Origin: a virus
Virus record (IMG/VR): IMGVR_UViG_3300033146_000616
Location: 1-64,000 of that record
DNA: 64,000 bases
Reading direction: 5' to 3' (one strand)
Shown: positions 4,732 to 60,369 of the stretch, one piece after another
Numbering within the stretch: position 1 is the stretch's first letter
Layout: every line of letters begins with the position of its first letter
Made by a program: the position numbers and the translations under genes
Notes under the pieces: generated by a model
Told to the model about the DNA's origin: nothing
Database searches by the model: none
What the model saw: only the letters and a program-made list of their open reading frames with translations

Positions 4732-5074
4732 TTATTTGAATTTGTAGATTATAGATTTATAATTTAAACCCTTCTCTGTATATATCTTCTCTCGTTCCTT
4801 AAATTGCTTCAAGGTCGTGTTCGAATATATTGGATAATTCTTCATCCGTAATGAACAGTCATCCACTAAATCATATATGTTAACTTCTTTTTTGCCTTCC
4901 ATTTTCCGTAAACCACGACCAATGGACTGTAGTACTTTAACTTTGGACTTATAACTTGACGCAAATATGATATTGTGTATATTCTTTATCGAAATTCCTG
5001 TCGAGAATGTACCGTACTCAATAGGATGCGATTAAAATCGCACCCTGAGCCTCCTTAATTCTTGTTGGTTTCAT
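4732..5074 (-). pseudogene. uvsW: UvsW helicase, C-terminal fragment with a 7-nt frame break
   Basis: ATG at 5074 overlaps the stop of the HNH gene (TTATGA) and has the ribosome site AAGGA. It reads MKPTRIKEAQGAILIASY and then hits TGA at 5018-5020. Seven nucleotides later (5014-5020 skipped) the frame resumes at GGT as GTFSTGISIKN. It continues through helicase motif VI (LQSIGRGLRK), ending at TAA 4732. This is the missing RecA-like lobe 2 end of UvsW, whose first 430 or so residues are at 6004-7428. Skipping TGAGTAC restores an uninterrupted UvsW sequence. It could be a decayed fragment, a recoded gene or a sequence error. Confidence 0.8.
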
Positions 5075-5967
5075 AATACGTCCTTTATTTTAGGTTTATT
5101 TTTAGCTTTTGTTTTTCTGAGTTTCATGCGTTCTCTATATTCTGGATCAGTCCATCGTTTCTTCATTCCCTCACTTTTTTTCTTAGAATCACCAATCTTT
5201 CTATTTTTCATTTTAGCTTTAAAATCTGAGTCTTGCCATTTTTCTTTTATTTTAATTGAAGCATCTTTTCTTTTATCTTCATCTTGGTTTATTGATTTCA
5301 TTTTTTCTTTGAATAAATCTCTTTCTATATCGGATTTATTATCCCAAACCTTTTGTGTCGCCTTAGATATACGTTCTTTTGCTTCGGGAGTGTTCCGCTC
5401 AATAATCATACTTTTAATTGTTCTATTCCTGTATTCTTCATCTTTCCATAAATCTTTAAATTGTTTTCCTACTTTATTTCTTTCGTTTATATCTTTAAAA
5501 CGTTCTTTATTTCTTTTAATTGATAAATCAGAAAAACCAACTTCCAAACACCATTTTTTCATGAATAATGATCTTTTTTCTTGCCAGTGTTTATAATTTG
5601 GGGATAATTTAAAATTTACCCAAGATTTTTTTGTTGCTATTGATAATTTTTGTCTAAATTCTTTTTGATCTTGTTCTGATTTATGTAACATAAAATTCAA
5701 AGGTCTTAGGAATTGTTTTATTGGATATGCGTCACTCAATAAAATATGTGCCTTAACGTGATCCTCATATAACAAATTATAAATGTTTTCAGAATCCTTT
5801 ATATATTCGTTAAATAAGCTTGAAGGTAACAAATGGTGTTTTTCATAAATACACCCTTCCTCATTTATATGCTTCACGTTCATCAAAACAAAGTTTATAT
5901 ATTCGTTTAATTTTAATTCATTAAACGGTATACCCAATTTATCAATCATTATACTCTCAAAATCCAT
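5071..5967 (-). CDS. HNH homing endonuclease inserted in uvsW
   Basis: 298 aa. The HNH core is near the N-terminus: YEKHHLLPSSL around residue 42, then ENIYNLLYEDHVKAHILL. The rest is a long, lysine-rich region with repeated segments (KERISKATQKVWDN, KRKDASIKIKEKWQD, KSEGMKKRWTDPEYRERM), typical of the DNA-binding tails of phage HNH enzymes. It separates the two pieces of UvsW. It has its own late box (6001-6008) and its stop overlaps the start of the UvsW C-terminal fragment. Specificity cannot be read from the sequence. Confidence 0.88.
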   Translation of the reverse strand: MDFESIMIDKLGIPFNELKLNEYINFVLMNVKHINEEGCIYEKHHLLPSSLFNEYIKDSENIYNLLYEDHVKAHILLSDAYPIKQFLRPLNFMLHKSEQDQKEFRQKLSIATKKSWVNFKLSPNYKHWQEKRSLFMKKWCLEVGFSDLSIKRNKERFKDINERNKVGKQFKDLWKDEEYRNRTIKSMIIERNTPEAKERISKATQKVWDNKSDIERDLFKEKMKSINQDEDKRKDASIKIKEKWQDSDFKAKMKNRKIGDSKKKSEGMKKRWTDPEYRERMKLRKTKAKNKPKIKDVL

Positions 5968-25342: not shown

Positions 25343-26371
25343 TTACCTCAAGAAGTCAATAAAATCATTTTTGAATTTCAATAATTTATATCCACCCATT
25401 ATATCACTAACCCGTCTTTCATTCATGATAAAAAATAATTCTTCTCGACCAAACACATTCTCAGATTTATTAATTCTTTCCGCTAATAATATTTCTAAAT
25501 TTAGATCATCAATATGTTTATTGTCTGGATATTTCTTATATGATTGATATTCATTAAATGGAACATGTGCTAAACTAAAACAAAGATATTTGGTACTATC
25601 TTCAAAAATACCTAACTCGAAATGTTTTCTATTATGAGATGATATAATACTCATAATTTCGTCTTTTAATTCTGTATCTCTAATTTGTTTTATAATTGGT
25701 ATAATAATGCCTTGTGGTTTTAATTGTAGATCTAAAATTGTATTTTTTAATGATTGTAGTGAAGTAACGGTTTTGATTTCTATATTAAACTTACTATATT
25801 TCAATAATAGTACTTTAATATAGTTTGCTATTCTCAGGCTATATCCGTCTTCATCTCTTAGTATATAATAATTGTTAAATTCTACTCCATTACGTTTTAT
25901 ATAATACATAAAGGTTGAGAAATTGATTTCAGAAAAACTAACAAAATAACCTTTATGTTCTTCATTAAACAATTGTTCAAAATAATCAGAGTCTTTCAAG
26001 AAATTAAATAATCCAACTCGTATACCTAGCCTATCCCTAAATTCCATAATTTCTTTATTGTACAATATAAATGTTGTTTGAGAGGCGATTATTAGTAATT
26101 CTGGTGATTTATTTTCAACACGTACTAATGCTTTTTTAATTTTTTGGTCCATTTTATTTTCGGAACATTGAGAATCACAATTCATGAATATACGTGTTAT
26201 GTTATATTTTGGATCTGATAGATATTTGTTTAGTTCCCTGCTTAGTACTTCACAATTTTGGTTAGCATAAGATTTATCAAATAATACTACAATATTATGG
26301 GTTTCTGTTTTTTTAGCGTATGATATAGATGAGATCAAACAAAACATTATAGAAATTAAAATTATTTTCAT
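25343..26371 (-). CDS. Secreted substrate-binding-like protein (cassette gene 1)
   Basis: 342 aa. A classical signal peptide MKIILISIMFCLISSISYAKK with an AxA-like cleavage point. The mature part has a two-lobe alternating alpha/beta pattern (HNIVVLFDKSYANQN, PELLIIASQTTFILYN, KPQGIIIPIIKQIRD) like ABC-type periplasmic binding proteins of the ABC_sub_bind kind. There are no transporter genes nearby; two membrane proteins follow instead. First gene after a late promoter, so made late. Confidence 0.72.
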   Translation of the reverse strand: MKIILISIMFCLISSISYAKKTETHNIVVLFDKSYANQNCEVLSRELNKYLSDPKYNITRIFMNCDSQCSENKMDQKIKKALVRVENKSPELLIIASQTTFILYNKEIMEFRDRLGIRVGLFNFLKDSDYFEQLFNEEHKGYFVSFSEINFSTFMYYIKRNGVEFNNYYILRDEDGYSLRIANYIKVLLLKYSKFNIEIKTVTSLQSLKNTILDLQLKPQGIIIPIIKQIRDTELKDEIMSIISSHNRKHFELGIFEDSTKYLCFSLAHVPFNEYQSYKKYPDNKHIDDLNLEILLAERINKSENVFGREELFFIMNERRVSDIMGGYKLLKFKNDFIDFLR

Positions 26372-27000: not shown

Positions 27001-29064
27001 TTATCGAGCGATTAACTCTTCGAAATTAGCATCAGTACGAGTCACATTCATATTAATCTGAATGAACTCAGCGACTTTAGTAGGTTTAATATATACGTCA
27101 ATAATCAACGCATTTTTGTCAATAACTTCTGCTGTATTATTAGAGTTATCAATAACAACCAAGAAATCATAGATTCCACGGCGACCTTTAACATCACGCA
27201 AGAATGGTTCAATTAAACCACGTAATCTAGCACGAGTGAACTCGTCATTGAATTCGAATAACGCATATCGTGAAGCGGAAGCAATTGCTTTTTCAACAGT
27301 AATAAGCAATCTACGAACATTAACTCTATCAAATGCTGAAGGTTTAGCAAATGAAGTTTTTTGACCCCAAACAATCATTACGCCTTCGCCAGGAACTGAC
27401 ATAACAGGATTGATTGAATTAACATACATATCATCACGATTTTGTTTGTTAGGATTAAAAGCAGGTTTAATCGAGTTACGAATCTTACCACGTTCTAAAC
27501 CAGCAAATGCCCACCAAGGATCTCGATTAGCATCAGTTTGTGCGGCTAAACCAGCAATATCACCAGCGATACATAACCAACGATTTACATCATTGAATTT
27601 GTCATACTGATATTTCATATTTCCGTAAATAGCAGAATATGAATTGAAGGTATAGAATGTTCCAGCAACTGGAGCAGTTTGTGAACCAAATTCAGCAATC
27701 AAATATTGCGAAGCATCAGTTGCTGATTTACCAACAATAGACTGATAATCATAAGGAGCAACAATTGCTAAACAATCTTTCCGAGTAGCGGCAATCGTTG
27801 AAGCTCTATTCATATCTAATTGATGAGATACTAACAAGTTGATATCGAAAGACTCAGGATCAGCAAATGAATCAAATGCTGTCATTACGTCACTTTGAGT
27901 ATAACCAATTGGATCATAAATCCATTTATCAAATGTTGAACCATCAGCTAAGAATTGCTTCTTACGTGGATATAACCATTCTGGTTCAGTAGCTTCTACA
28001 TTAATAGCTGTACCAGTTAATTTCATCAATTCAGAACCTGATGTATTGATGTCATTAGGATACTCTAAATTATAACGTCCATAAAGAACTTCTGATGATT
28101 TGAACAAAGTTTCGTCAACAAAGATATTCCGTCCTTCTGAATCCCGACCTGATTCTTTTTTCGACAATACATATTCTTCAATATTCTGATATTCACCATC
28201 ATCATTAGTACTGAATACGATAAGAGCAAATTCACCTTTAGTAAACTCAGGTGGATATTCAAAGAATTTAGAAAAATCAACTAATGAACCATCAGCATTA
28301 ACTAAATCACCATCAAACATCTCTTCACGATATGATTTAACAGCATCCGATAAAGCAACATTAAATGTCATTTCACCAGAAATAGCGGCATCTGAGGCAT
28401 CAACAATATGAGGAGTAACATTCAATGAAGTAGCACCAACAGAAACAACAGAATAAGTATTTCCGTCATAAACGAAAGTATCACCAGTAACCATTGTGTT
28501 ATAAGTGAATTCAATATCAGATGAACCGTTATCACCAGTTGAGTCAAAAATTGGTGCTGATACTAATTTATGAAGTCCTTCAGCAGAAAATGGCTTATTC
28601 CATTCTGATGCTGACATACAAATAGCAACAGCTAATTTTTGATCTGATGATACTTGTTTGTTATAAAGTTGTAAGCCTTCAGGAACCATACCTTCTAAGG
28701 TAAGTTCAGCCATATCGGAATTGAATAATTTCTCTTGAGATAATTGTTCAGCTTTAACAATACCTGCGGCAGAAGTTAATTCCATACCTGCGTTTTGAAC
28801 TTCATTGTCCATTGCTCGGACCATGTAAAGAGAACTTGAATACTGTAAGAAGTTCCAAGCATTATACCAATCTTGGTAATTGAATGCTGTAGGTTCTCCA
28901 AAAGCAGAAACTAGATCTCTTTCTGATGTTATCGACTTAATTGTTAGGGATTCGCCAACTGCAGAACGAATAACCATACCTGTTTTAGCACTAGGTAAGT
29001 TAGGAACTGATAAAGTTAGATCGAACTCTCTAACATCGACTGAGGGAGATAGTGAAAATGCCAT
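27001..29064 (-). CDS. gp18: Contractile tail sheath protein gp18
   Basis: 687 aa (T4 gp18 659 aa). N-terminal MAFSLSPSVDVREFDLTLSVPN and the C-terminal domain with FDRVNVRRLLITVEKAIASASRYALFEFND are typical of T4-like sheaths; the latter is the conserved inner domain. It contracts to drive the tube into the host. A hairpin-forming leader lies between its late promoter and start. Confidence 0.96.
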   Translation of the reverse strand: MAFSLSPSVDVREFDLTLSVPNLPSAKTGMVIRSAVGESLTIKSITSERDLVSAFGEPTAFNYQDWYNAWNFLQYSSSLYMVRAMDNEVQNAGMELTSAAGIVKAEQLSQEKLFNSDMAELTLEGMVPEGLQLYNKQVSSDQKLAVAICMSASEWNKPFSAEGLHKLVSAPIFDSTGDNGSSDIEFTYNTMVTGDTFVYDGNTYSVVSVGATSLNVTPHIVDASDAAISGEMTFNVALSDAVKSYREEMFDGDLVNADGSLVDFSKFFEYPPEFTKGEFALIVFSTNDDGEYQNIEEYVLSKKESGRDSEGRNIFVDETLFKSSEVLYGRYNLEYPNDINTSGSELMKLTGTAINVEATEPEWLYPRKKQFLADGSTFDKWIYDPIGYTQSDVMTAFDSFADPESFDINLLVSHQLDMNRASTIAATRKDCLAIVAPYDYQSIVGKSATDASQYLIAEFGSQTAPVAGTFYTFNSYSAIYGNMKYQYDKFNDVNRWLCIAGDIAGLAAQTDANRDPWWAFAGLERGKIRNSIKPAFNPNKQNRDDMYVNSINPVMSVPGEGVMIVWGQKTSFAKPSAFDRVNVRRLLITVEKAIASASRYALFEFNDEFTRARLRGLIEPFLRDVKGRRGIYDFLVVIDNSNNTAEVIDKNALIIDVYIKPTKVAEFIQINMNVTRTDANFEELIAR

Positions 29065-29170
29065 CTTAATACTCCTAAGTGAGTTATGGGTTGATATAAA
29101 TCAAGACGTAATTGTACACGGATTTACGTCAATTAATTAATTTATATTATGTTTTTGTACCGTATATATT

Positions 29171-29178
29171 TATTTATA
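29171..29178 (-). promoter_or_regulatory. Late promoter TATAAATA for gp18-gp19
   Basis: Exact late box 107 nt upstream of gp18. The leader contains an inverted repeat (GACGTAA with TTACGTC) that may fold in the mRNA. Confidence 0.75.
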
Positions 29179-29191
29179 AAAGTTTCATTTT

Positions 29192-30922
29192 TTAATCAAA
29201 CAACCACGAGGAATTTTCACCCATATCATCTCTTAATCCATCATCAACAACACCGAACGCAGGTAATTCTTCTTCAATCGCTACTTCAGTTTCTTTTAAT
29301 CTATCTTCGTTAAATAATACATTCGCCATTTGTTTCATATCAGTAAACGCATCAAATTCGGGTCTAGTGGTGAAAAATAAAGTTCCCATCAAAGACATAA
29401 CCAAATCATCCGCATATGTAGCTTCTGCCGCAAATGAACCATTCTTTTGTCTAATGAATGTAGATAATTCCTCTATTGTATACGCATCATTAATTTTTAA
29501 TTTCCCTCGTTCAATCCAACCTTTTAGATTAGAACAACCTAACCGCTTTGTCTTAGTTGTAGTTCTATAACCAGCAATATTTGGCTTCTCATAAAATACA
29601 TTCTCATATTCAAAATCATAAGCTAATGAATCCACTATCTGTTGACCAATCTCGTTATTCTCAACAAACGCATATGCCCAATTATAATATCTACCTATCG
29701 TATAAGCAATTTCTGGAATTTGTAGATAATGCATTCCATTAGCGGCTTGGAAGACAGCTACTTGTTGAAATGGATATCTTGTGATATCAATAATTTGAAT
29801 AGCAACAGGGTCGCCAGATGAATTTTCAGTTAATTTAGATGAATCAACTGACATGATATAAGAGTGACCTTTTTTGATAGTTTTATAGACTCTAAGGAAT
29901 TTAGCATGGTCGTTTAATAACTCATGTAATTGGGTTTCTTTTTTGTCATGAAGGAATGATAACTTCTCTAATGTATTCGAGTCGATCAAAGTTAAAGCAG
30001 AGCCTAAGAATTTACCTTCAAATTCTCGGTTAAACTCTTCGGTCGTCATATTAGAGAGTGTTTCTTTTTTCCATTTTTCATCACGTCCAGGAACTTGTGA
30101 CCAATGAACCTTTATAGGGTTAAATGTATTTCTCAGATTGGGATCTTTGGTAGTTGCGGCTTGCCAATATCTATAGAAATGATTCATACCATTAGGAGTC
30201 GATACTAGGATCGTTTTAGACGTTTTGGATGAGGATACAGTAGGATAAACAGACGAAAAGAACTCAGTCCATAGGTTCGCTGGGATAAATGCCATTTCGT
30301 CAATTATGAGTACATTTATCGAAAATGAACGAACTGCGGATGATGATGTTGCTCCTGCTAATACTGAACATCCATTCTCTAATTCGATCATGGAATTATT
30401 CCACATCTTTATACCAGATTGTAACCATTTTGGTAAGAGTTCATAAGCGACTTTAACTTTACGGAGGATATTAGTAGCGGACATAGCTTTGTTAGCAAGT
30501 ACAGCAACAGATTTCTGCTCTTGGAATAAAATATAATGACAAACAAAAATTTCAAAAGAAGTAGATTTACCACAATTATGAGATAAGATATTATTGGTGT
30601 AATATCTTTCGTTATCCGACATATATATATCATATAATTGTTGAAAAGAACCCTCTTTGATGTTCGTAATTTTTCTTGTTCCGAATTTTGATATTACTAA
30701 GTCATTAACTTTTAATTTTATAGCTTGAATGGCTTGAAACTTGGGGTTAAACAAGATATGATCAAGTGAGCAATTTAATTCAGAATTATCATCAAAAGAT
30801 AAAATCAATGTTTTTGATATATCAGTCTTCATAACACCTTGGAAATCATTCCAACCTTCGTCAGTTTCGATTTCCCATTCGTTGTTATCTATAATTGTTA
30901 CGTTCGTGTTATCTTCTATCAT
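29192..30922 (-). CDS. gp17: Terminase large subunit gp17, C-terminal half preceded by the C-part of a split intein
   Basis: 576 aa. Residues 1-116 are an intein C-part: block B-like FDDNSELNCSLDHILF, a block F-like QLYDIYMSDNERYYTNNI and the terminal LSHN. Residue 117 is Cys and starts the C-extein CGKSTSFEIF, the second half of Walker A. The terminase continues with Walker B VLIIDEMAFIP, LVSTPNGMNHFYRYW, nuclease MSVDSS and ADDLVMSLMG. Its start overlaps the zinc-finger gene stop (ATGA). Protein splicing with the product of 32082-32489 would give a 560-aa gp17. Confidence 0.93.
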   Translation of the reverse strand: MIEDNTNVTIIDNNEWEIETDEGWNDFQGVMKTDISKTLILSFDDNSELNCSLDHILFNPKFQAIQAIKLKVNDLVISKFGTRKITNIKEGSFQQLYDIYMSDNERYYTNNILSHNCGKSTSFEIFVCHYILFQEQKSVAVLANKAMSATNILRKVKVAYELLPKWLQSGIKMWNNSMIELENGCSVLAGATSSSAVRSFSINVLIIDEMAFIPANLWTEFFSSVYPTVSSSKTSKTILVSTPNGMNHFYRYWQAATTKDPNLRNTFNPIKVHWSQVPGRDEKWKKETLSNMTTEEFNREFEGKFLGSALTLIDSNTLEKLSFLHDKKETQLHELLNDHAKFLRVYKTIKKGHSYIMSVDSSKLTENSSGDPVAIQIIDITRYPFQQVAVFQAANGMHYLQIPEIAYTIGRYYNWAYAFVENNEIGQQIVDSLAYDFEYENVFYEKPNIAGYRTTTKTKRLGCSNLKGWIERGKLKINDAYTIEELSTFIRQKNGSFAAEATYADDLVMSLMGTLFFTTRPEFDAFTDMKQMANVLFNEDRLKETEVAIEEELPAFGVVDDGLRDDMGENSSWLFD

Positions 30923-31110
30923 AAATATAAACTATTCGTTAGTTCTATTTCGTTAACAACTTCTGTTGCTGTTTGTGCGTCATATGCGTGATCGTTTATT
31001 AGGTGTTCTCTTAATTTTGATATTGGACCCTCTTTAGTACATTCAGGACAACTAACTAAGAAAACGTTCGCATTTTTTGAATTCGGTTTTTTTGTTTTCA
31101 TTATATTCAT
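30919..31110 (-). CDS. Small C2H2-like zinc-finger protein between the terminase halves
   Basis: 63 aa (or 60 from the second Met at 31101). It has CPECTKEGPISKLREHLINDH, a C-x2-C...H-x4-H type finger similar to one in the N-terminus of the neighbouring endonuclease (ECKICGARFNDKIVSHINAMH). It overlaps the endonuclease 3' end by 59 nt and its stop overlaps the terminase C-part start. It may be a detached endonuclease domain or a small regulator; role unknown. Confidence 0.68.
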   Translation of the reverse strand: MNIMKTKKPNSKNANVFLVSCPECTKEGPISKLREHLINDHAYDAQTATEVVNEIELTNSLYL

Positions 31111-32032
31111 CTTCCCATATAATTAATAATTTATAGTTATTTTTTAATAATATGTCTTCTTTAATTTTGTCTTTTTTCCATATTTCTAAAGCACTGCGTT
31201 TATTGACTGGATTGATATAATCTTCATTATACACTCCCGGCTTACAATGCCAAAACACACCATTATATTCAATAACTTTTTTATTTTTGGTGTCTACAAT
31301 ATCAAATATCTTACCACCAATAGTGACTTGAGATTCAACATCAAATTTTATTTTTAGTTGTAAAAATAATTCAGTTTCACCTTTCGATATAGAATATCCT
31401 GATGACATTTTCGCTTTGTTAATTCTCGCTTTTTCTTCTGGTGGTTTATTACTGAGAGTTGATTGCCATTTATCTTGTCTCTCTTGAAATATTTTTAAAC
31501 CTTTTTCTTCGCCATGTTTTTGAATACATATTGCTTTTGAAAAGGTTCTTTGTCTTGCTGAATGTTTTATCTTCGCTTCTTCCAACGAATATCCTTTTCC
31601 TATCCAATAGTCTAATTTTGTTTGGTATGATCTATTATTGATAGCTTTTTGTTGCGATTCTTCAGAATAAAAATGCGATTTTTTACTCCAAGGCGAAAGT
31701 CTACCTCTGTGTTTCCAAGCAGGATTCTTCTCACCTTTTTGAAACCCCATATTGGGTATATTTAGATATTTTTTTGAGAAACATTCGTCTTTTGTCGCAC
31801 CAGTTTGAGTTTGATATTCTTGTAATGATAAATTATGCATCGCATTTATATGACTAACTATTTTATCATTAAATCTAGCACCGCATATTTTACATTCTAT
31901 GTCCCCTGTTGAGTTCTTTAATTTTTCTATTTTTCTTCTCTTGTGTCTACAATGACCACTACAACAGACTGAATTCTTTTGTTTCGCTATAAATTCACCA
32001 TCACAAATTATACATCTTCTATTTTCTTCCAT
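31052..32032 (-). CDS. Vsr-like (EDxHD-type) homing endonuclease inside the fractured terminase
   Basis: 326 aa. Two N-terminal zinc-finger-like clusters (CIICDGEF...CCSGHCRHKRR, then IECKICGARF). The C-terminal nuclease domain has SKGETELFLQLK, FDIVDTKNKKVIEYNGVFWH and a final NYKLLIIWEDEY. The last pattern (E-Y-N-G-x-x-W-H, then L-I-I-W-E-x-E) is that of the Vsr-like homing enzymes found between split-intein halves in environmental phage genes. It has its own late box at 32052-32059. Target site not deducible. Confidence 0.88.
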   Translation of the reverse strand: MEENRRCIICDGEFIAKQKNSVCCSGHCRHKRRKIEKLKNSTGDIECKICGARFNDKIVSHINAMHNLSLQEYQTQTGATKDECFSKKYLNIPNMGFQKGEKNPAWKHRGRLSPWSKKSHFYSEESQQKAINNRSYQTKLDYWIGKGYSLEEAKIKHSARQRTFSKAICIQKHGEEKGLKIFQERQDKWQSTLSNKPPEEKARINKAKMSSGYSISKGETELFLQLKIKFDVESQVTIGGKIFDIVDTKNKKVIEYNGVFWHCKPGVYNEDYINPVNKRSALEIWKKDKIKEDILLKNNYKLLIIWEDEYNENKKTEFKKCERFLS

Positions 32033-32051
32033 TTTTATCTCTCCTTATAGT

Positions 32052-32059
32052 TATTTATA
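32052..32059 (-). promoter_or_regulatory. Late promoter TATAAATA for the terminase homing endonuclease
   Basis: Exact late box 20 nt upstream of the endonuclease start, between it and the N-terminal terminase gene. Confidence 0.75.
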
Positions 32060-32081
32060 AAAAGATAATAAAAAGTGAATG

Positions 32082-32489
32082 TTACGTGTCAGTGTGGTTT
32101 AGTTGATTATAGAAATCTCCAATTTCTATATCTTTAATTTCCCCCGTCTTTTTGTTCCTTACTCTGATAGTTGTATCTTCAGAAACACATTGTCGAGTAG
32201 CATTAACAACACTGTTGCGATGATCCACAAAAGATGCTAACATTTGCTTTTGATAATCCCGCAATTTGATCTTCAAAATGCCTTCATCCAATGATTTTAT
32301 ATGATAATATTTCTCAGCAAAATAAAATACATCTTCTTTACATTTGATAAACTCTTTGATATGCTCCGCTGAATATGGAAGTTGAACATCAGCTTTTTTT
32401 AGGTTCTTATTATTCTCATAATATATAGCATCATTACCATCCATATCAACAAGGATATCTGGTATATCCCATTCTATTTTTTGTGCCAT
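32082..32489 (-). CDS. gp17: Terminase large subunit gp17, N-terminal part with split-intein N-part
   Basis: 135 aa. Residues 1-100 are the gp17 N-terminus, ending LRDYQKQMLASFVDHRNSVV then NATRQ, the first half of Walker A. Residue 101 is Cys and starts a 35-aa intein N-part (CVSEDTTIRV, then GEIKDIEIGDFYNQL), holding only block A. The split so close to the intein N-terminus is the atypical type known from the Ace Lake TerL intein. Joined to C-extein CGKST it gives TRQCGKST, matching T4 SRQLGKTT. Confidence 0.93.
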   Translation of the reverse strand: MAQKIEWDIPDILVDMDGNDAIYYENNKNLKKADVQLPYSAEHIKEFIKCKEDVFYFAEKYYHIKSLDEGILKIKLRDYQKQMLASFVDHRNSVVNATRQCVSEDTTIRVRNKKTGEIKDIEIGDFYNQLNHTDT

Positions 32490-32498
32490 TTGTATACC

Positions 32499-33092
32499 TT
32501 AATTAGTTTTTTCGTTTTTAGCATCTTCTAATAATTGGAGAATGTCGTGAGTCGAACCAGCTACAATAACATTTTGTGTAACTGTACCACCTTGTCCAAC
32601 TGTTATTTGCCCTTGAGACGAACCTAAATTCTCTTGATTCAAACCTCGTAACAAAACATATTTGTCCTTCTCAACAGCTATGATATCTTTATAAATCCCC
32701 ATTAACAATTTAATATTTTCACCTGTAGACCGTTGTAATGAAGATAACGCTTCCAATTGGGATGCTTTCATATCACCAATATCTAATGAACCAGTATCAT
32801 CAAGAATACCTTGACCTCGACTGATAACAGCTAAGATATTAGTTCTCATAGACATGAAATCTTGTTTGAGTAAATCTAATGTAAATACTTCTTCAGGTTT
32901 ATCTAATTCTAAAGGTAGGTGTTCGCCAGGCTCTTTGATTTCATAAGTATCTAAAGAAGTCAAATCTTCATCTAAGACTTCGATAATCTCAGAAACTTCG
33001 ATAATCTCAGTCATTTGATTAATCGAATTTTCAGCCATATTGAATTTTTCATGTAGTGCTTTTAGTTTATCGTCTGCTTTAGACATATTCAT
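32499..33092 (-). CDS. gp16: Terminase small subunit gp16
   Basis: 197 aa (T4 gp16 164 aa); the likely start is the second Met at 33086 (MSKADDK). The central region DLLKQDFMSMRTNILAVISRGQ and the helix KASQLEALSSLQRSTGENIKLLMGIYKDI match T4-like gp16. It recognises DNA and regulates gp17. It lies 9 nt upstream of the gp17 N-part, in T4 order. Confidence 0.88.
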   Translation of the reverse strand: MNMSKADDKLKALHEKFNMAENSINQMTEIIEVSEIIEVLDEDLTSLDTYEIKEPGEHLPLELDKPEEVFTLDLLKQDFMSMRTNILAVISRGQGILDDTGSLDIGDMKASQLEALSSLQRSTGENIKLLMGIYKDIIAVEKDKYVLLRGLNQENLGSSQGQITVGQGGTVTQNVIVAGSTHDILQLLEDAKNEKTN

Positions 33093-33101
33093 TCCTTTGG
33101 T

Positions 33102-34208
33102 TTATCTTGTTATTTCTAAATCCCCTTGATCAGTAATAGCCATATTGAAAACGATATCAGATGTCTTCTCTGTAAATTGAACTACTTGTGGTGAGCCAAT
33201 TGCTAAATCAGAATCTGTAGTTTTAATTTTAATTATATTGAAATCAGCATTAATGATATAGGTAGTTGTTCCAGCTAAATCTGTCATATAAAATTCATCA
33301 GATGTATAATCAAATTCACCTTCAGAACTAATTAATAAAACTTCGAAACTTGAATCTTTATATGTTTGTTCAAATGTATCAATTTCTTTTAATGAGCGTT
33401 TTTTAATGGATATAGTTTCAGGTTCTCTATTATAAATCAAACCAAAGACTTCATCGAAAGAATTAATGTTATCTAACTTATTAGCGTTTAATTGATATTG
33501 AGTTAATTGGTCATGTTCAGCACCCTTTTCATTAGGATGAAGATTCATAATAACATCATTAATTCTCCCACGAATTCGCTTTGGAGTATGGAAATTAATT
33601 TTCATTCTGAAAGTTAAAATCCAGATGAAGTTGCGGTCTACATCAGCATCCAAATCTTCATCATGAGTAGGAGTAACTGAATCTAAAATAATAGGTACAG
33701 AATCCGAAGCGAATCCATCTAAATATTTGATATTGACAGATAAAGAAGGTTGGAAAAAAGGCACAATCTGTTCAATAATTTGTAAACCGTCATCCATATT
33801 TTTAGATATAACAGCTAATTCAAATTCTAAGTTCCAAGGTGCTGGAGCGAATGATGAGTCAATTTTTAAGTCATTTAACGTACAATCTTCACAAGCATAT
33901 ATCTTATTAGTTTTACCTACTTTTCTCATAGTGTCATAACTAAGAGAAGTGATATTAGTTGAGATTCTAGGAAATATCATATCAACTTCAAAACGTGCGT
34001 TATTGTGGAATCCATCGTGATTACCAGCGAAATGGACTTTGGATTGAATCTGTTGCATCCATTTTTCACGGTTAGCGAATTGAATAGGCACTCTAAACAA
34101 TTTAGTGGAACCATCAGAGCGATATTTCTCAATCCATAGTTTATCAAACAGTGTCATGAATGAGATAACAGATTTTCTAATTATGTTTCTGTGTGCGAAA
34201 TATTGCAT
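33102..34208 (-). CDS. gp15: Tail sheath stabiliser/completion protein gp15
   Basis: 368 aa, longer than T4 gp15 (272 aa) by a C-terminal beta-rich extension. T4-like features: FDKLWIEKY...KLFRVPIQFANREKW, FPRISTNITSLSYD, and ISKNMDDGLQIIEQIVPFFQPS. It caps the tail and joins it to the neck. The extension from about residue 270 has no recognised family. Confidence 0.9.
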   Translation of the reverse strand: MQYFAHRNIIRKSVISFMTLFDKLWIEKYRSDGSTKLFRVPIQFANREKWMQQIQSKVHFAGNHDGFHNNARFEVDMIFPRISTNITSLSYDTMRKVGKTNKIYACEDCTLNDLKIDSSFAPAPWNLEFELAVISKNMDDGLQIIEQIVPFFQPSLSVNIKYLDGFASDSVPIILDSVTPTHDEDLDADVDRNFIWILTFRMKINFHTPKRIRGRINDVIMNLHPNEKGAEHDQLTQYQLNANKLDNINSFDEVFGLIYNREPETISIKKRSLKEIDTFEQTYKDSSFEVLLISSEGEFDYTSDEFYMTDLAGTTTYIINADFNIIKIKTTDSDLAIGSPQVVQFTEKTSDIVFNMAITDQGDLEITR

Positions 34209-40985: not shown

Positions 40986-41555
40986 CTATACCAATTTCTT
41001 TAGTTTGTCAAATAAAGACCAAGTTCGTTTATCCATATTATCTTTAAATTGCTCTAAATCGTCATTCTTTAATGCTTCACGTACTTTAGAAGCTGAGATA
41101 TCTTTACCTGTTCGGGCAATCTCTTCTACTTTGATATTTATATCAATCTTATCAGCATATCGTTTAATCATACCTTGATAAGATTTCACTCTATCGGAGC
41201 CACAATAAAATGCTATAGGTTCATAATTTTTCTCACGTAATTGATGTACCCATTCACCAAAGAAACCATTATCTGCTTCTATGAATTGGTGTGGTATCGA
41301 AGTCAACATTTTACTGAAGACTTCTTTTTGAATCTTCGAATCGAAAAATACATCAGAAGCTTTCCCTTTAATGAGAACAATAACTACTTCTTTCTTATAT
41401 TTCTTATAAGCAATTTCGATAGCTTTCAAATGTCCGGCAGTAGGAGGTTGCATTCTTCCAGCGAAAACAACACATTCCTTCTTGCCTTTAGTCCTAGAAA
41501 TAGCATCAATAGCGATTGCTTCATTGAAAAATGTTTTGAAATTATTTATTTCCAT
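40986..41555 (-). CDS. Nucleotidyltransferase (NMN adenylyltransferase-like) with a capsid leader
   Basis: 189 aa. The start NNFKTFFNEAIAIDA resembles the capsid leader. Then comes the HIGH-superfamily core: ECVVFAGRMQPPTAGHLKAI (T-x-G-H motif), YCGSDRVKSYQGM, and DISASKVREAL (I-S-x-x-x-x-R motif). NadM/cytidylyltransferase family; the substrate is not certain, but NMN is the usual one in phages. A partial second copy of its first 40 residues lies at 42419-42610 beyond an inserted GIY-YIG endonuclease. Confidence 0.82.
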   Translation of the reverse strand: MEINNFKTFFNEAIAIDAISRTKGKKECVVFAGRMQPPTAGHLKAIEIAYKKYKKEVVIVLIKGKASDVFFDSKIQKEVFSKMLTSIPHQFIEADNGFFGEWVHQLREKNYEPIAFYCGSDRVKSYQGMIKRYADKIDINIKVEEIARTGKDISASKVREALKNDDLEQFKDNMDKRTWSLFDKLKKLV

Positions 41556-42349
41556 TTTCGACCTCTAATATAACCACCGGATAGTATTCTTGGGTCGTTA
41601 TCTTTAAATTTGGTTGTTTGGTTGTTTTCATTAACATACCATTTCAATCCTTGGCGATTCTTTTTTGCTTCTTCTGATATCTTTCGACCCGATAACGTTC
41701 TGCTTATATTTTGTTTGTGTTCCTCTGAATGTTTTTTCCCCTTTAAACTTTCACTTAATTTTTTCTTTCTTTGTTGTGCTTTTTCAAAACCATTAATTTC
41801 TTCATATGTTTTACCACTAAATCTAGGTCTATCTACTCCTCGCCATTTAGCTTTTTGTTCGTCTGTGTGGGTTTTTCCAAAAAAACCATTATCCTCTCCA
41901 AACATAACACCATACCCGTGATTTTTGACTTTTGATCTCGCATATTTCGCATGAGCTTTTACTTTTTCTGGATTGTTTTTTATATATTCCCTAAGCCCTT
42001 TTAATCTAGCAGGAAAAGATTCTCTTACCTTTTCCTTAAATTTCTTTTGTTTTTCTGGGGATAATGATGAGTATATATCACCACCATCACCACCATCAGC
42101 AATATTATAGCATTCTTCGTTAGATGATTTTGCCGATTTTATAAATTCTTTTTCTTTTTTGTTGAGTTCCTCTAATGAACTACACTCACATAAGATTATC
42201 TTTTTGAAATTATTCCGTCCATATTTCTTAATGGCTTTTGTTATCAATAATCCTGAACCTAAGTACTCTATTGATTCCTCAATAGAGTTACTACATTTGC
42301 CTACATAAATTTTGTTGTTTATTTGGTTTATTGTTTTATAAATATACAT
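41546..42349 (-). CDS. GIY-YIG homing endonuclease (Seg-like)
   Basis: 267 aa. GIY-YIG domain: MYIYKTINQINNKIYVGK, then YLGSGLLITKAIKKYGRNNF and EELNKKEKEFI with the catalytic Glu. C-terminal NUMOD3-type helices (EDNGFFGKTHTDEQKAKW, EEHKQNISRTLSGRKISEE) bind DNA. It overlaps the nucleotidyltransferase start by 10 nt and is flanked on both sides by related sequence. Late box at 42370-42377. Confidence 0.92.
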   Translation of the reverse strand: MYIYKTINQINNKIYVGKCSNSIEESIEYLGSGLLITKAIKKYGRNNFKKIILCECSSLEELNKKEKEFIKSAKSSNEECYNIADGGDGGDIYSSLSPEKQKKFKEKVRESFPARLKGLREYIKNNPEKVKAHAKYARSKVKNHGYGVMFGEDNGFFGKTHTDEQKAKWRGVDRPRFSGKTYEEINGFEKAQQRKKKLSESLKGKKHSEEHKQNISRTLSGRKISEEAKKNRQGLKWYVNENNQTTKFKDNDPRILSGGYIRGRKWK

Positions 42350-59322: not shown

Positions 59323-60369
59323 TTAATCGAAAAATGATTCCAAGCTTGAGGTGTTTATTTGTGGTGCTTTGGCATCCTTATCAACAAACACTATTATATC
59401 TTCGTCATTATCTAGACCCTCGTGTCTTGTTATATTTTTTAATGTCTCTAATCCAAATATATCAAACCCATTTTCTAATGATATATCTCGCATATCATCC
59501 AAGAGCTTATAATCTTTCATATTTTTCATATTCAATAAGAAAAATCCATCTTGTACCAAATATTTTCTGATATTCTTAACAGTGCCTAACCAATAAGTAT
59601 TCAACCATTCATCATATGATACACCCTCGGTAAATGATTGTTCACCAATCCGATAATCTTCCTGATTATAATATGGCGGCGATGAAAATGCGATTCCCAT
59701 TTTATTTTCGAATTCTGGAACAAATACCTCAGAGCCTTGGGTTTTGATTATTGCTTTCGTCTTTGAATTATTGACTTTTGTATACATATTATACAATTCA
59801 TTTAGTCGTTCTGTCAATAAATAATTTGGATCTGTACCAAAATAATTCACTTTCTGTACTAACGAACCTAATAACCTTGAACCCCATCCACATGAATAAT
59901 CATAATAATTACCATTTGTGTTATACTTCTCTAATATAGACTTGACCGATTCAATAAAATAATTAGGAGGTTTGACACCAAATACAGAACCCGCTAACCT
60001 GAAAATAGCATGACAATTAACAATAAGATTTTTATCAGAAAATACATTCTGTTTAGCAACAATTTTACCAACCATTCTATCCATCATGATTTTGTTTTTT
60101 AATGTACCATCAATAGTGATTTGGGTGTTTAATGTTTTTACTAAACTCATGATGTCATAAAAGAAATATTTCTCTATTTTAGGAATTGTATTCCTCCCAT
60201 GATAAATTTCTCTAAGCTGATATTCAACAGAATCAACACTTGGTTTCTGTAGTATATGAAAAACTATATCTTTAATTTCTTGAGCAGTTAAATCAACATA
60301 ATAACGATATAGTTTTCCATCAACTATTTTATCAAGTTCTAATCTCTTTTCGAAATCTTTAGTTAACAT
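59323..60369 (-). CDS. DNA methyltransferase (SPPY amino-MTase)
   Basis: 348 aa. AdoMet-binding motif I NYYDYSCGWGSRLLGSLVQ (near residue 147), FGTDPNYLLTERL, catalytic motif IV IAFSSPPYYNQEDY, then NGFDIFGLETLKN. SPPY suggests N4-cytosine methylation, but N6-adenine is possible. No target-recognition domain or restriction partner is visible. Placed between the two topoisomerase genes and adjacent to both with 0 and 58 nt gaps. Confidence 0.86.
   Translation of the reverse strand: MLTKDFEKRLELDKIVDGKLYRYYVDLTAQEIKDIVFHILQKPSVDSVEYQLREIYHGRNTIPKIEKYFFYDIMSLVKTLNTQITIDGTLKNKIMMDRMVGKIVAKQNVFSDKNLIVNCHAIFRLAGSVFGVKPPNYFIESVKSILEKYNTNGNYYDYSCGWGSRLLGSLVQKVNYFGTDPNYLLTERLNELYNMYTKVNNSKTKAIIKTQGSEVFVPEFENKMGIAFSSPPYYNQEDYRIGEQSFTEGVSYDEWLNTYWLGTVKNIRKYLVQDGFFLLNMKNMKDYKLLDDMRDISLENGFDIFGLETLKNITRHEGLDNDEDIIVFVDKDAKAPQINTSSLESFFD

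What the first reader, a model, noticed from the sequence alone, without database searches (positions are those of the whole stretch)
29192..32489. Fractured terminase gene: an atypical split intein cuts gp17 inside Walker A, with an endonuclease between the halves
Seen: the N-part ends NATRQ followed by Cys and only block A of an intein (35 aa). The C-part has 116 aa of intein with blocks B, F and the SHN end, followed by CGKST. Joining gives TRQCGKST, the gp17 Walker A. Known: fractured genes with split inteins and Vsr-like endonucleases, and the Ace Lake TerL split intein with a very short N-part, were described from metagenomes. Inference: protein trans-splicing rebuilds a 560-aa terminase motor, so packaging depends on splicing. 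Here the whole arrangement is visible in its genome context.
Basis: partly seen in the sequence, partly recalled or inferred. Interest (0 to 1): 0.92.

Follow-up and report, generated by a model that had tools for sequence, protein, structure and literature searches.

The report
Split-intein terminase gene broken at P-loop
A T4-like phage encodes its DNA-packaging motor as two separate genes that a split intein must stitch together at the ATP-binding loop, with a homing endonuclease gene between them; the type is known, but relatives show the same endonuclease family breaking the same loop in several unrelated phage enzymes.

Summary
On the minus strand TerL-N (135 aa) = 100 aa extein ending NATRQ plus a 35-aa intein N-part; TerL-C (576 aa) = 116-aa intein C-part ending SHN plus CGKST... 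(460 aa). Close relatives carry the uninterrupted gene with exactly NATRQ|CGKST, so this is a filled homing site. All class-1 splicing residues are present, and both extein halves are under purifying selection. The 326-aa protein between the halves folds like Vsr / I-Bth0305I (EDxHD) in its C-terminal domain and has a late-promoter motif. Fractured genes with split inteins and Vsr-like endonucleases, and TerL split inteins (AceL, GOS), are known, so the window holds a new member of a known kind. The AceL-type site, however, appears to be elsewhere in TerL (CatC ends |CE), not Walker A. The larger result comes from relatives. Searching IMG/VR with the endonuclease alone gave 80 loci; 78 carry an intein C-part, each at a P-loop, in TerL, Rad50/SbcC-like, DnaB-like and ClpB-type genes (RecA in phage MIJ3). 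The endonuclease tree needs repeated switches between these hosts. One locus (L239) has the window's exact site. Splicing, cleavage and homing were not tested.

The parts
32190..32489 (-). TerL-N extein, 100 aa ending NATRQ (first half of Walker A)
   Evidence: 81% identical to L001
32085..32189 (-). Intein N-part, 35 aa (CVSEDTTIRVRNKKTGEIKDIEIGDFYNQLNHTDT), followed by stop at 32082-32084
   Evidence: IntN HMM 2.7e-16; aligns with Vibrio phages vB_VmeM-32 and BX-1 IntN
32052..32059 (-). TATAAATA, T4-type late-promoter motif 27 nt before the endonuclease ATG; AAGGAG Shine-Dalgarno follows
   Evidence: consensus match only
31052..32032 (-). Endonuclease, 326 aa: N-terminal zinc-binding/ROS-MucR-like part, C-terminal Vsr/EDxHD-type nuclease domain (D244, E255, H262, D288 conserved)
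30919..31110 (-). 63-aa (or 60-aa from 31101) ORF with CX2C-X11-HX4H pattern; overlaps endonuclease end by 59 nt, its TGA overlaps the ATG of TerL-C
   Evidence: no relative found, function inferred
30575..30922 (-). Intein C-part, 116 aa, block B CSLDH, block F, end ILSHN
29195..30574 (-). TerL-C extein, 460 aa from CGKST (rest of ATPase plus RNase H-like nuclease)
   Evidence: 86% identical to L001

Best explanation
The large terminase gene of this T4-like phage was invaded at Walker A by a homing cassette consisting of an atypically split intein and a free-standing Vsr/EDxHD-type endonuclease gene. The two half-proteins are translated separately, associate through the short IntN and the long IntC, and a class 1 trans-splicing reaction (Cys1 thioester, transfer to Cys+1, Asn cyclisation) joins TRQ to CGKST, giving a 560-aa gp17. 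The endonuclease presumably cuts uninterrupted terL alleles at the P-loop in mixed infections, and repair copies the whole cassette. Shown from sequence: anatomy, splicing residues, empty alleles, purifying selection, and recurrence of the same endonuclease family at P-loops. Inferred: splicing, cleavage and homing.
For: Anatomy and residues. Empty-site alleles L001-L004. dN/dS about 0.08-0.11 for both extein halves against L001 and L002. Vsr / I-Bth0305I fold, Foldseek probability 1.00, E 0.003-0.01. 78 of 80 loci found by the endonuclease alone have an intein C-part at a P-loop. L239 repeats the same site, order and endonuclease. The halves lie on opposite strands in L148 and vB_VmeM-32, so RNA-level or frameshift joining in cis is excluded there. 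No Rfam match in 28500-33500. Contiguous TerL inteins of mycobacteriophages splice and two have active endonucleases (PMC5050341).
Against: No biochemical or proteomic data. Only one contig carries this exact cassette; an exact 30-base junction search found no second copy. The role of the 63-aa ORF is unknown. Part of the constraint on the exteins may predate the insertion.
Confidence: 0.88

Rival explanations
1. The terminase is simply broken (defective phage or assembly chimera) and the intein halves are decayed remnants.
For: Single metagenomic contig; exact junction not found in another record.
Against: All splicing residues and both reading frames are intact; both exteins are constrained; the neighbouring T4-like gene order is intact; the same architecture recurs in dozens of independent contigs and in an identical site in L239.
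Confidence: 0.05
2. The halves are joined at RNA level by a self-splicing intron, as for the terL intron of phage ICP1 (PMC10448857).
For: TerL introns exist in phages.
Against: No Rfam match even with permissive filters; the added sequence on both halves is intein by profile; in relatives L148 and vB_VmeM-32 the halves are on opposite strands.
Confidence: 0.02
3. Trans-splicing works but has been kept as a regulatory step that delays or conditions DNA packaging, not as a purely selfish element.
For: The endonuclease has its own late-promoter motif, TerL-C has no clear Shine-Dalgarno and overlaps the preceding ORF, so the two halves could be made at different times; conditional splicing is discussed for other ATPase inteins (PMC5050341).
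Against: Close relatives do without the insertion (L001-L004); patchy distribution and host switching of the endonuclease fit a selfish element.
Confidence: 0.1
4. The two halves assemble without covalent joining.
For: Some split enzymes work this way (a phage ribonucleotide reductase in pieces is cited in PMC10448857).
Against: The break lies inside Walker A and each half still carries the matching intein part with intact residues.
Confidence: 0.02

Closest known systems
Fractured genes with split inteins and Vsr-like homing endonucleases (Dassa et al. 2009; not readable here)
   Same: Gene cut into two ORFs by a split intein with a free-standing endonuclease ORF between; Vsr/EDxHD-type nuclease fold
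   Different: Whether P-loop insertions or this endonuclease subfamily were described there could not be checked
AceL-TerL, GOS-TerL and their consensus Cat (PDB 6dsl)
   Same: Split intein in a terminase large subunit; atypical S2 split; IntN/IntC 25/104 and 37/115 against 35/116 here (PMC11766414); best PDB match of IntC
   Different: CatC is followed by CE, which fits the |CEFLG site further along TerL and not Walker A; nearest inteins among the fetched loci are P-loop inteins
VidaL split intein (PDB 6vgv)
   Same: Short IntN; construct ends SHA|SGK, the register of the window's SHN|CGK
   Different: IntN 16 aa (S1 split; PMC13014065); Ser+1; weak similarity (E=0.005)
Mycobacteriophage TerL inteins (PMC5050341)
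   Same: Inteins in the TerL ATPase domain near functional motifs; splice; two with active endonuclease
   Different: Contiguous inteins in other terminase families; endonuclease not a separate gene
I-Bth0305I (EDxHD homing endonuclease, PDB 3r3p)
   Same: Catalytic-domain fold, TM-score 0.70 over the target
   Different: Sequence similarity low; different DNA-binding part

Membership tests
Class 1 split intein | Cys/Ser at position 1, block B His, penultimate His, terminal Asn, Cys/Ser/Thr +1 | tested here: met
   Cys101 of TerL-N; CSLDH; ILSHN; C+1
Class 1 split intein | Profile similarity to known inteins | tested here: met
   CatC 1e-7, gp41-1 2e-6
Class 1 split intein | Trans-splicing activity | not testable with these tools
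   needs co-expression
Fractured gene (split intein + free-standing endonuclease) | Two ORFs that join to one conserved protein, endonuclease ORF between | tested here: met
   empty alleles L001-L004
Fractured gene (split intein + free-standing endonuclease) | Endonuclease drives homing into empty alleles | not testable with these tools
   no cleavage assay; empty alleles exist
Vsr-like / EDxHD endonuclease | Vsr/I-Bth0305I catalytic fold | tested here: met
   Foldseek probability 1.00 to 1vsr, 3r3p, 1cw0, but E 0.003-0.01 and the match is limited to one domain of about 110 columns
Vsr-like / EDxHD endonuclease | Conserved active-site residues in order E-D-x-H-D | tested here: inconclusive
   D244, E255, H262, D288 conserved in 87-93% of cluster representatives; the first Glu was not clearly conserved and no residue superposition was made
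AceL/GOS-TerL intein allele (same insertion site) | Inserted at the same TerL position | tested here: not met
   CatC ends SHA|CE; window ends SHN|CGKS; native AceL flanks not available to read, so this rests on the PDB construct
Group I/II intron in terL | Intron RNA structure | tested here: not met
   no Rfam match up to E=1

The most novel reading that the evidence does not exclude
The endonuclease and split intein form a mobile cassette specialised on P-loops. It has jumped repeatedly between unrelated NTPase genes of phages (TerL, Rad50/SbcC-like, DnaB-like helicase, ClpB-type AAA+, RecA), each time breaking the gene at or next to the Gly-Lys of Walker A. The endonuclease family would then recognise, or easily evolve to recognise, P-loop coding DNA despite wobble differences.
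Probability: 0.55. Interest if true: 0.8.

Novelty: new member of a known kind. Interest (0 to 1): 0.6.

Why it matters
Why inteins sit so often in P-loops is an open question: selection for conserved, hard-to-delete sites, or targeting by the endonuclease. A single endonuclease family found almost only with split inteins at P-loops of several unrelated enzymes makes this testable with one cleavage experiment. The window also gives a natural filled/empty allele pair and a new 35/116 split intein for protein engineering. Some isolated phages (vB_VmeM-32, MIJ3) carry related fractured P-loop genes that could be examined directly.

Tried and rejected
Curated intein Pfam model on the record: no hit, too insensitive for this split intein; home-made HMMs were used instead. 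RNA-intron explanation: no Rfam match. Relatives of the 63-aa ORF: none in phages (best E=3) or in fetched loci. Sequence search of the endonuclease profile in the PDB: only Vsr at E about 1, so a fold comparison was run. Co-conversion signal: DNA identity to L001-L004 does not rise sharply at the junction, so no sign of a recent transfer from these relatives. DNA target shared across hosts: in 56 distinct GK|T/S sites conservation follows codon positions 1 and 2, wobble positions hold about 0.02-0.24 bits (except the Lys codon, limited to A/G by the code), so no common DNA word beyond the encoded P-loop was found. A second contig with the identical junction: none. Key papers (Dassa 2009; VidaL paper) were not in the library.

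Full report
Observation. The window is part of an IMG/VR virus record of 64,278 bases with T4-like gene order around the finding: tail sheath stabiliser, a weak TerS match, TerL, then downstream structural genes including the portal. On the minus strand TerL-N (32489..32082) holds 100 aa of terminase ending NATRQ and a 35-aa intein N-part. TerL-C (30922..29192) holds a 116-aa intein C-part ending ILSHN and 460 aa of terminase starting CGKST. TerL-C matches T4 gp17 structures at 3e-64, and the intein part matches CatC at 1e-7 and gp41-1 at 2e-6. This is far beyond chance.

Empty alleles. Four contigs with 74-86% identical TerL halves (L001-L004) encode NATRQCGKST without interruption. A fifth (L005) is uninterrupted here but fractured at Walker B (SIN|C ... 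SHN|CLIIDEMAF), with a GIY-YIG/NUMOD3 endonuclease between its halves. So fractured TerL genes come and go inside this phage group. Against L001, dN and dS are 0.137 and 1.79 for the N-extein and 0.101 and 1.07 for the C-extein: both halves are constrained.

The endonuclease. The 326-aa protein has no significant Pfam hit of its own. Aligned relatives match ROS/MUCR zinc fingers and DUF559/MTES_1575 nucleases. An AlphaFold model (mean pLDDT 85.5, pTM 0.45, C-terminal domain mostly 94-98) matches Vsr (1vsr) and the catalytic domain of I-Bth0305I (3r3p) with Foldseek probability 1.00 and E 0.003-0.01. D244, E255, H262 and D288 are conserved in 87-93% of cluster representatives. A TATAAATA motif and AAGGAG lie just before its start codon; these are consensus matches only.

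The 63-aa ORF. Between the endonuclease and TerL-C lies an ORF with a C2H2-like pattern (CPEC...HLINDH). Its stop overlaps the TerL-C start as ATGA, and TerL-C has no clear Shine-Dalgarno, so translational coupling is plausible. It has no relative. L239 has an extra zinc finger inside its endonuclease and no separate ORF. A zinc-finger accessory to the endonuclease is my guess.

The family. A search of IMG/VR with an alignment of the endonuclease only (window, Caulobacter phage Cr30, Vibrio phage vB_VmeM-32) gave 80 loci. Of these, 78 carry an intein C-part, in each case at a P-loop. In nearly all, a gene ending GK|C plus about 29-70 aa precedes, and a gene starting with IntC and continuing T/S follows. 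The two exceptions are Cr30 itself, where the endonuclease lies between TerS and an intact TerL, and a contig that ends too early but still has the N-half (L137). Host genes by Pfam on representatives: Rad50/SbcC-like AAA_23, DnaB_C, ClpB-type AAA (L146 with both P-loops broken), and RecA in phage MIJ3; TerL was recognised by its flanking motifs. In the endonuclease tree host labels need at least 10 changes, and well-supported branches alone force 4 for TerL and 3 for DnaB. Endonuclease and IntC similarities are correlated (Mantel r 0.36, 0 of 2000 permutations), so they partly travel together. A scan of 84,980 bacterial and archaeal species genomes gave only nine loci: this is essentially a phage element.

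Site register. Most members sit at GK|T/S. The window sits two residues upstream, TRQ|CGKS. The same register occurs in L239 (SRQ|CGKSTSFE, endonuclease 41% identical), in the MIJ3 RecA (GESG|SGKS, IntN 17 aa), in the vB_VmeM-32 gp41 (GVN|TGKS) and in the VidaL construct (SHA|SGK). An IntN-based search gave 80 loci: 60 at GK|C, 16 at the Walker B DE|C site, and 78 of 80 split.

Trans, not cis. In vB_VmeM-32 the TerL halves are about 79 kb apart on opposite strands, and in L148 they are on opposite strands. For these only joining at protein level (or of two separate transcripts) can work. This supports the same reading for the window, where the halves are collinear.

Known and new. Fractured genes with split inteins and Vsr-like endonucleases are cited as Dassa et al. 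2009. TerL split inteins AceL (25/104) and GOS (37/115) are known, as are contiguous inteins in the TerL ATPase domain and the general preference of inteins for P-loop ATPases. So the window is a new member of a known kind. CatC ends SHA|CE, so the AceL-type insertion seems to be a different TerL site; the native flanks could not be read. I found no paper that describes one endonuclease family tied to P-loops of several unrelated genes, but the main papers were not available, so that novelty claim is provisional.

Limits. No wet-lab evidence; one contig for the exact cassette; host labels for most loci rest on sequence motifs; the 80 loci are partly redundant (60 clusters at 85% among all 89 endonucleases collected).

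Noticed in passing
L136 5643-11047 (and L144): TerL encoded in four genes by three split inteins (P-loop, Walker B, CQFLGS site) with a Vsr-type and two GIY-YIG-like endonuclease regions; three trans-splicing events would be needed.
   Followed up: partly
L088 7668-8345 and L097 1102-3216 (Vibrio phage vB_VmeM-32): TerL halves about 79 kb apart on opposite strands; TerL-C also carries a contiguous mini-intein at Walker B; gp41 (L093 5595-8670) and UvsX are also fractured.
   Followed up: partly
L148 3589-5997: TerL-N and TerL-C of one split intein on opposite strands, adjacent.
   Followed up: partly
L005 4401-7419: Close relative of the window with TerL fractured at Walker B by another split intein and a GIY-YIG/NUMOD3 endonuclease.
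   Followed up: yes
L098 2908-5914 (Pseudomonas phage MIJ3): RecA fractured at GESG|SGKS with a 17-aa IntN and an endonuclease of this family; annotated only as hypothetical proteins and RecA.
   Followed up: partly
L146 1141-8090: ClpB-type AAA+ gene with both P-loops fractured by split inteins of this family.
   Followed up: partly
L086, L087 (Serratia phage 92A1, Providencia phage PSTRCR_127): TerL fractured at QEH|CAEF with a separate ORF between, in isolated phages; the pieces are annotated partly as hypothetical proteins.
   Followed up: partly
L081 4979-8063: Phage that seems to read TAG as Gln carries the fractured P-loop terminase (SRQTSK|TTT) with this endonuclease.
   Followed up: partly
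L092 3992-5014 (Caulobacter phage Cr30): Endonuclease of this family between TerS and an uninterrupted TerL, without intein.
   Followed up: no
window 41546-42349 and 5071-5967: Two further homing endonuclease-like genes (GIY-YIG/NUMOD3; HNH-type next to the gp41 helicase gene).
   Followed up: no
window 25343-26371: 342-aa protein with a signal-peptide-like start among the structural genes; only a weak PHROG match of unknown function.
   Followed up: no
window 59323-60369: 348-aa ORF between the two topoisomerase II subunit genes; weak sub-cutoff match to N6_N4 methylase.
   Followed up: no
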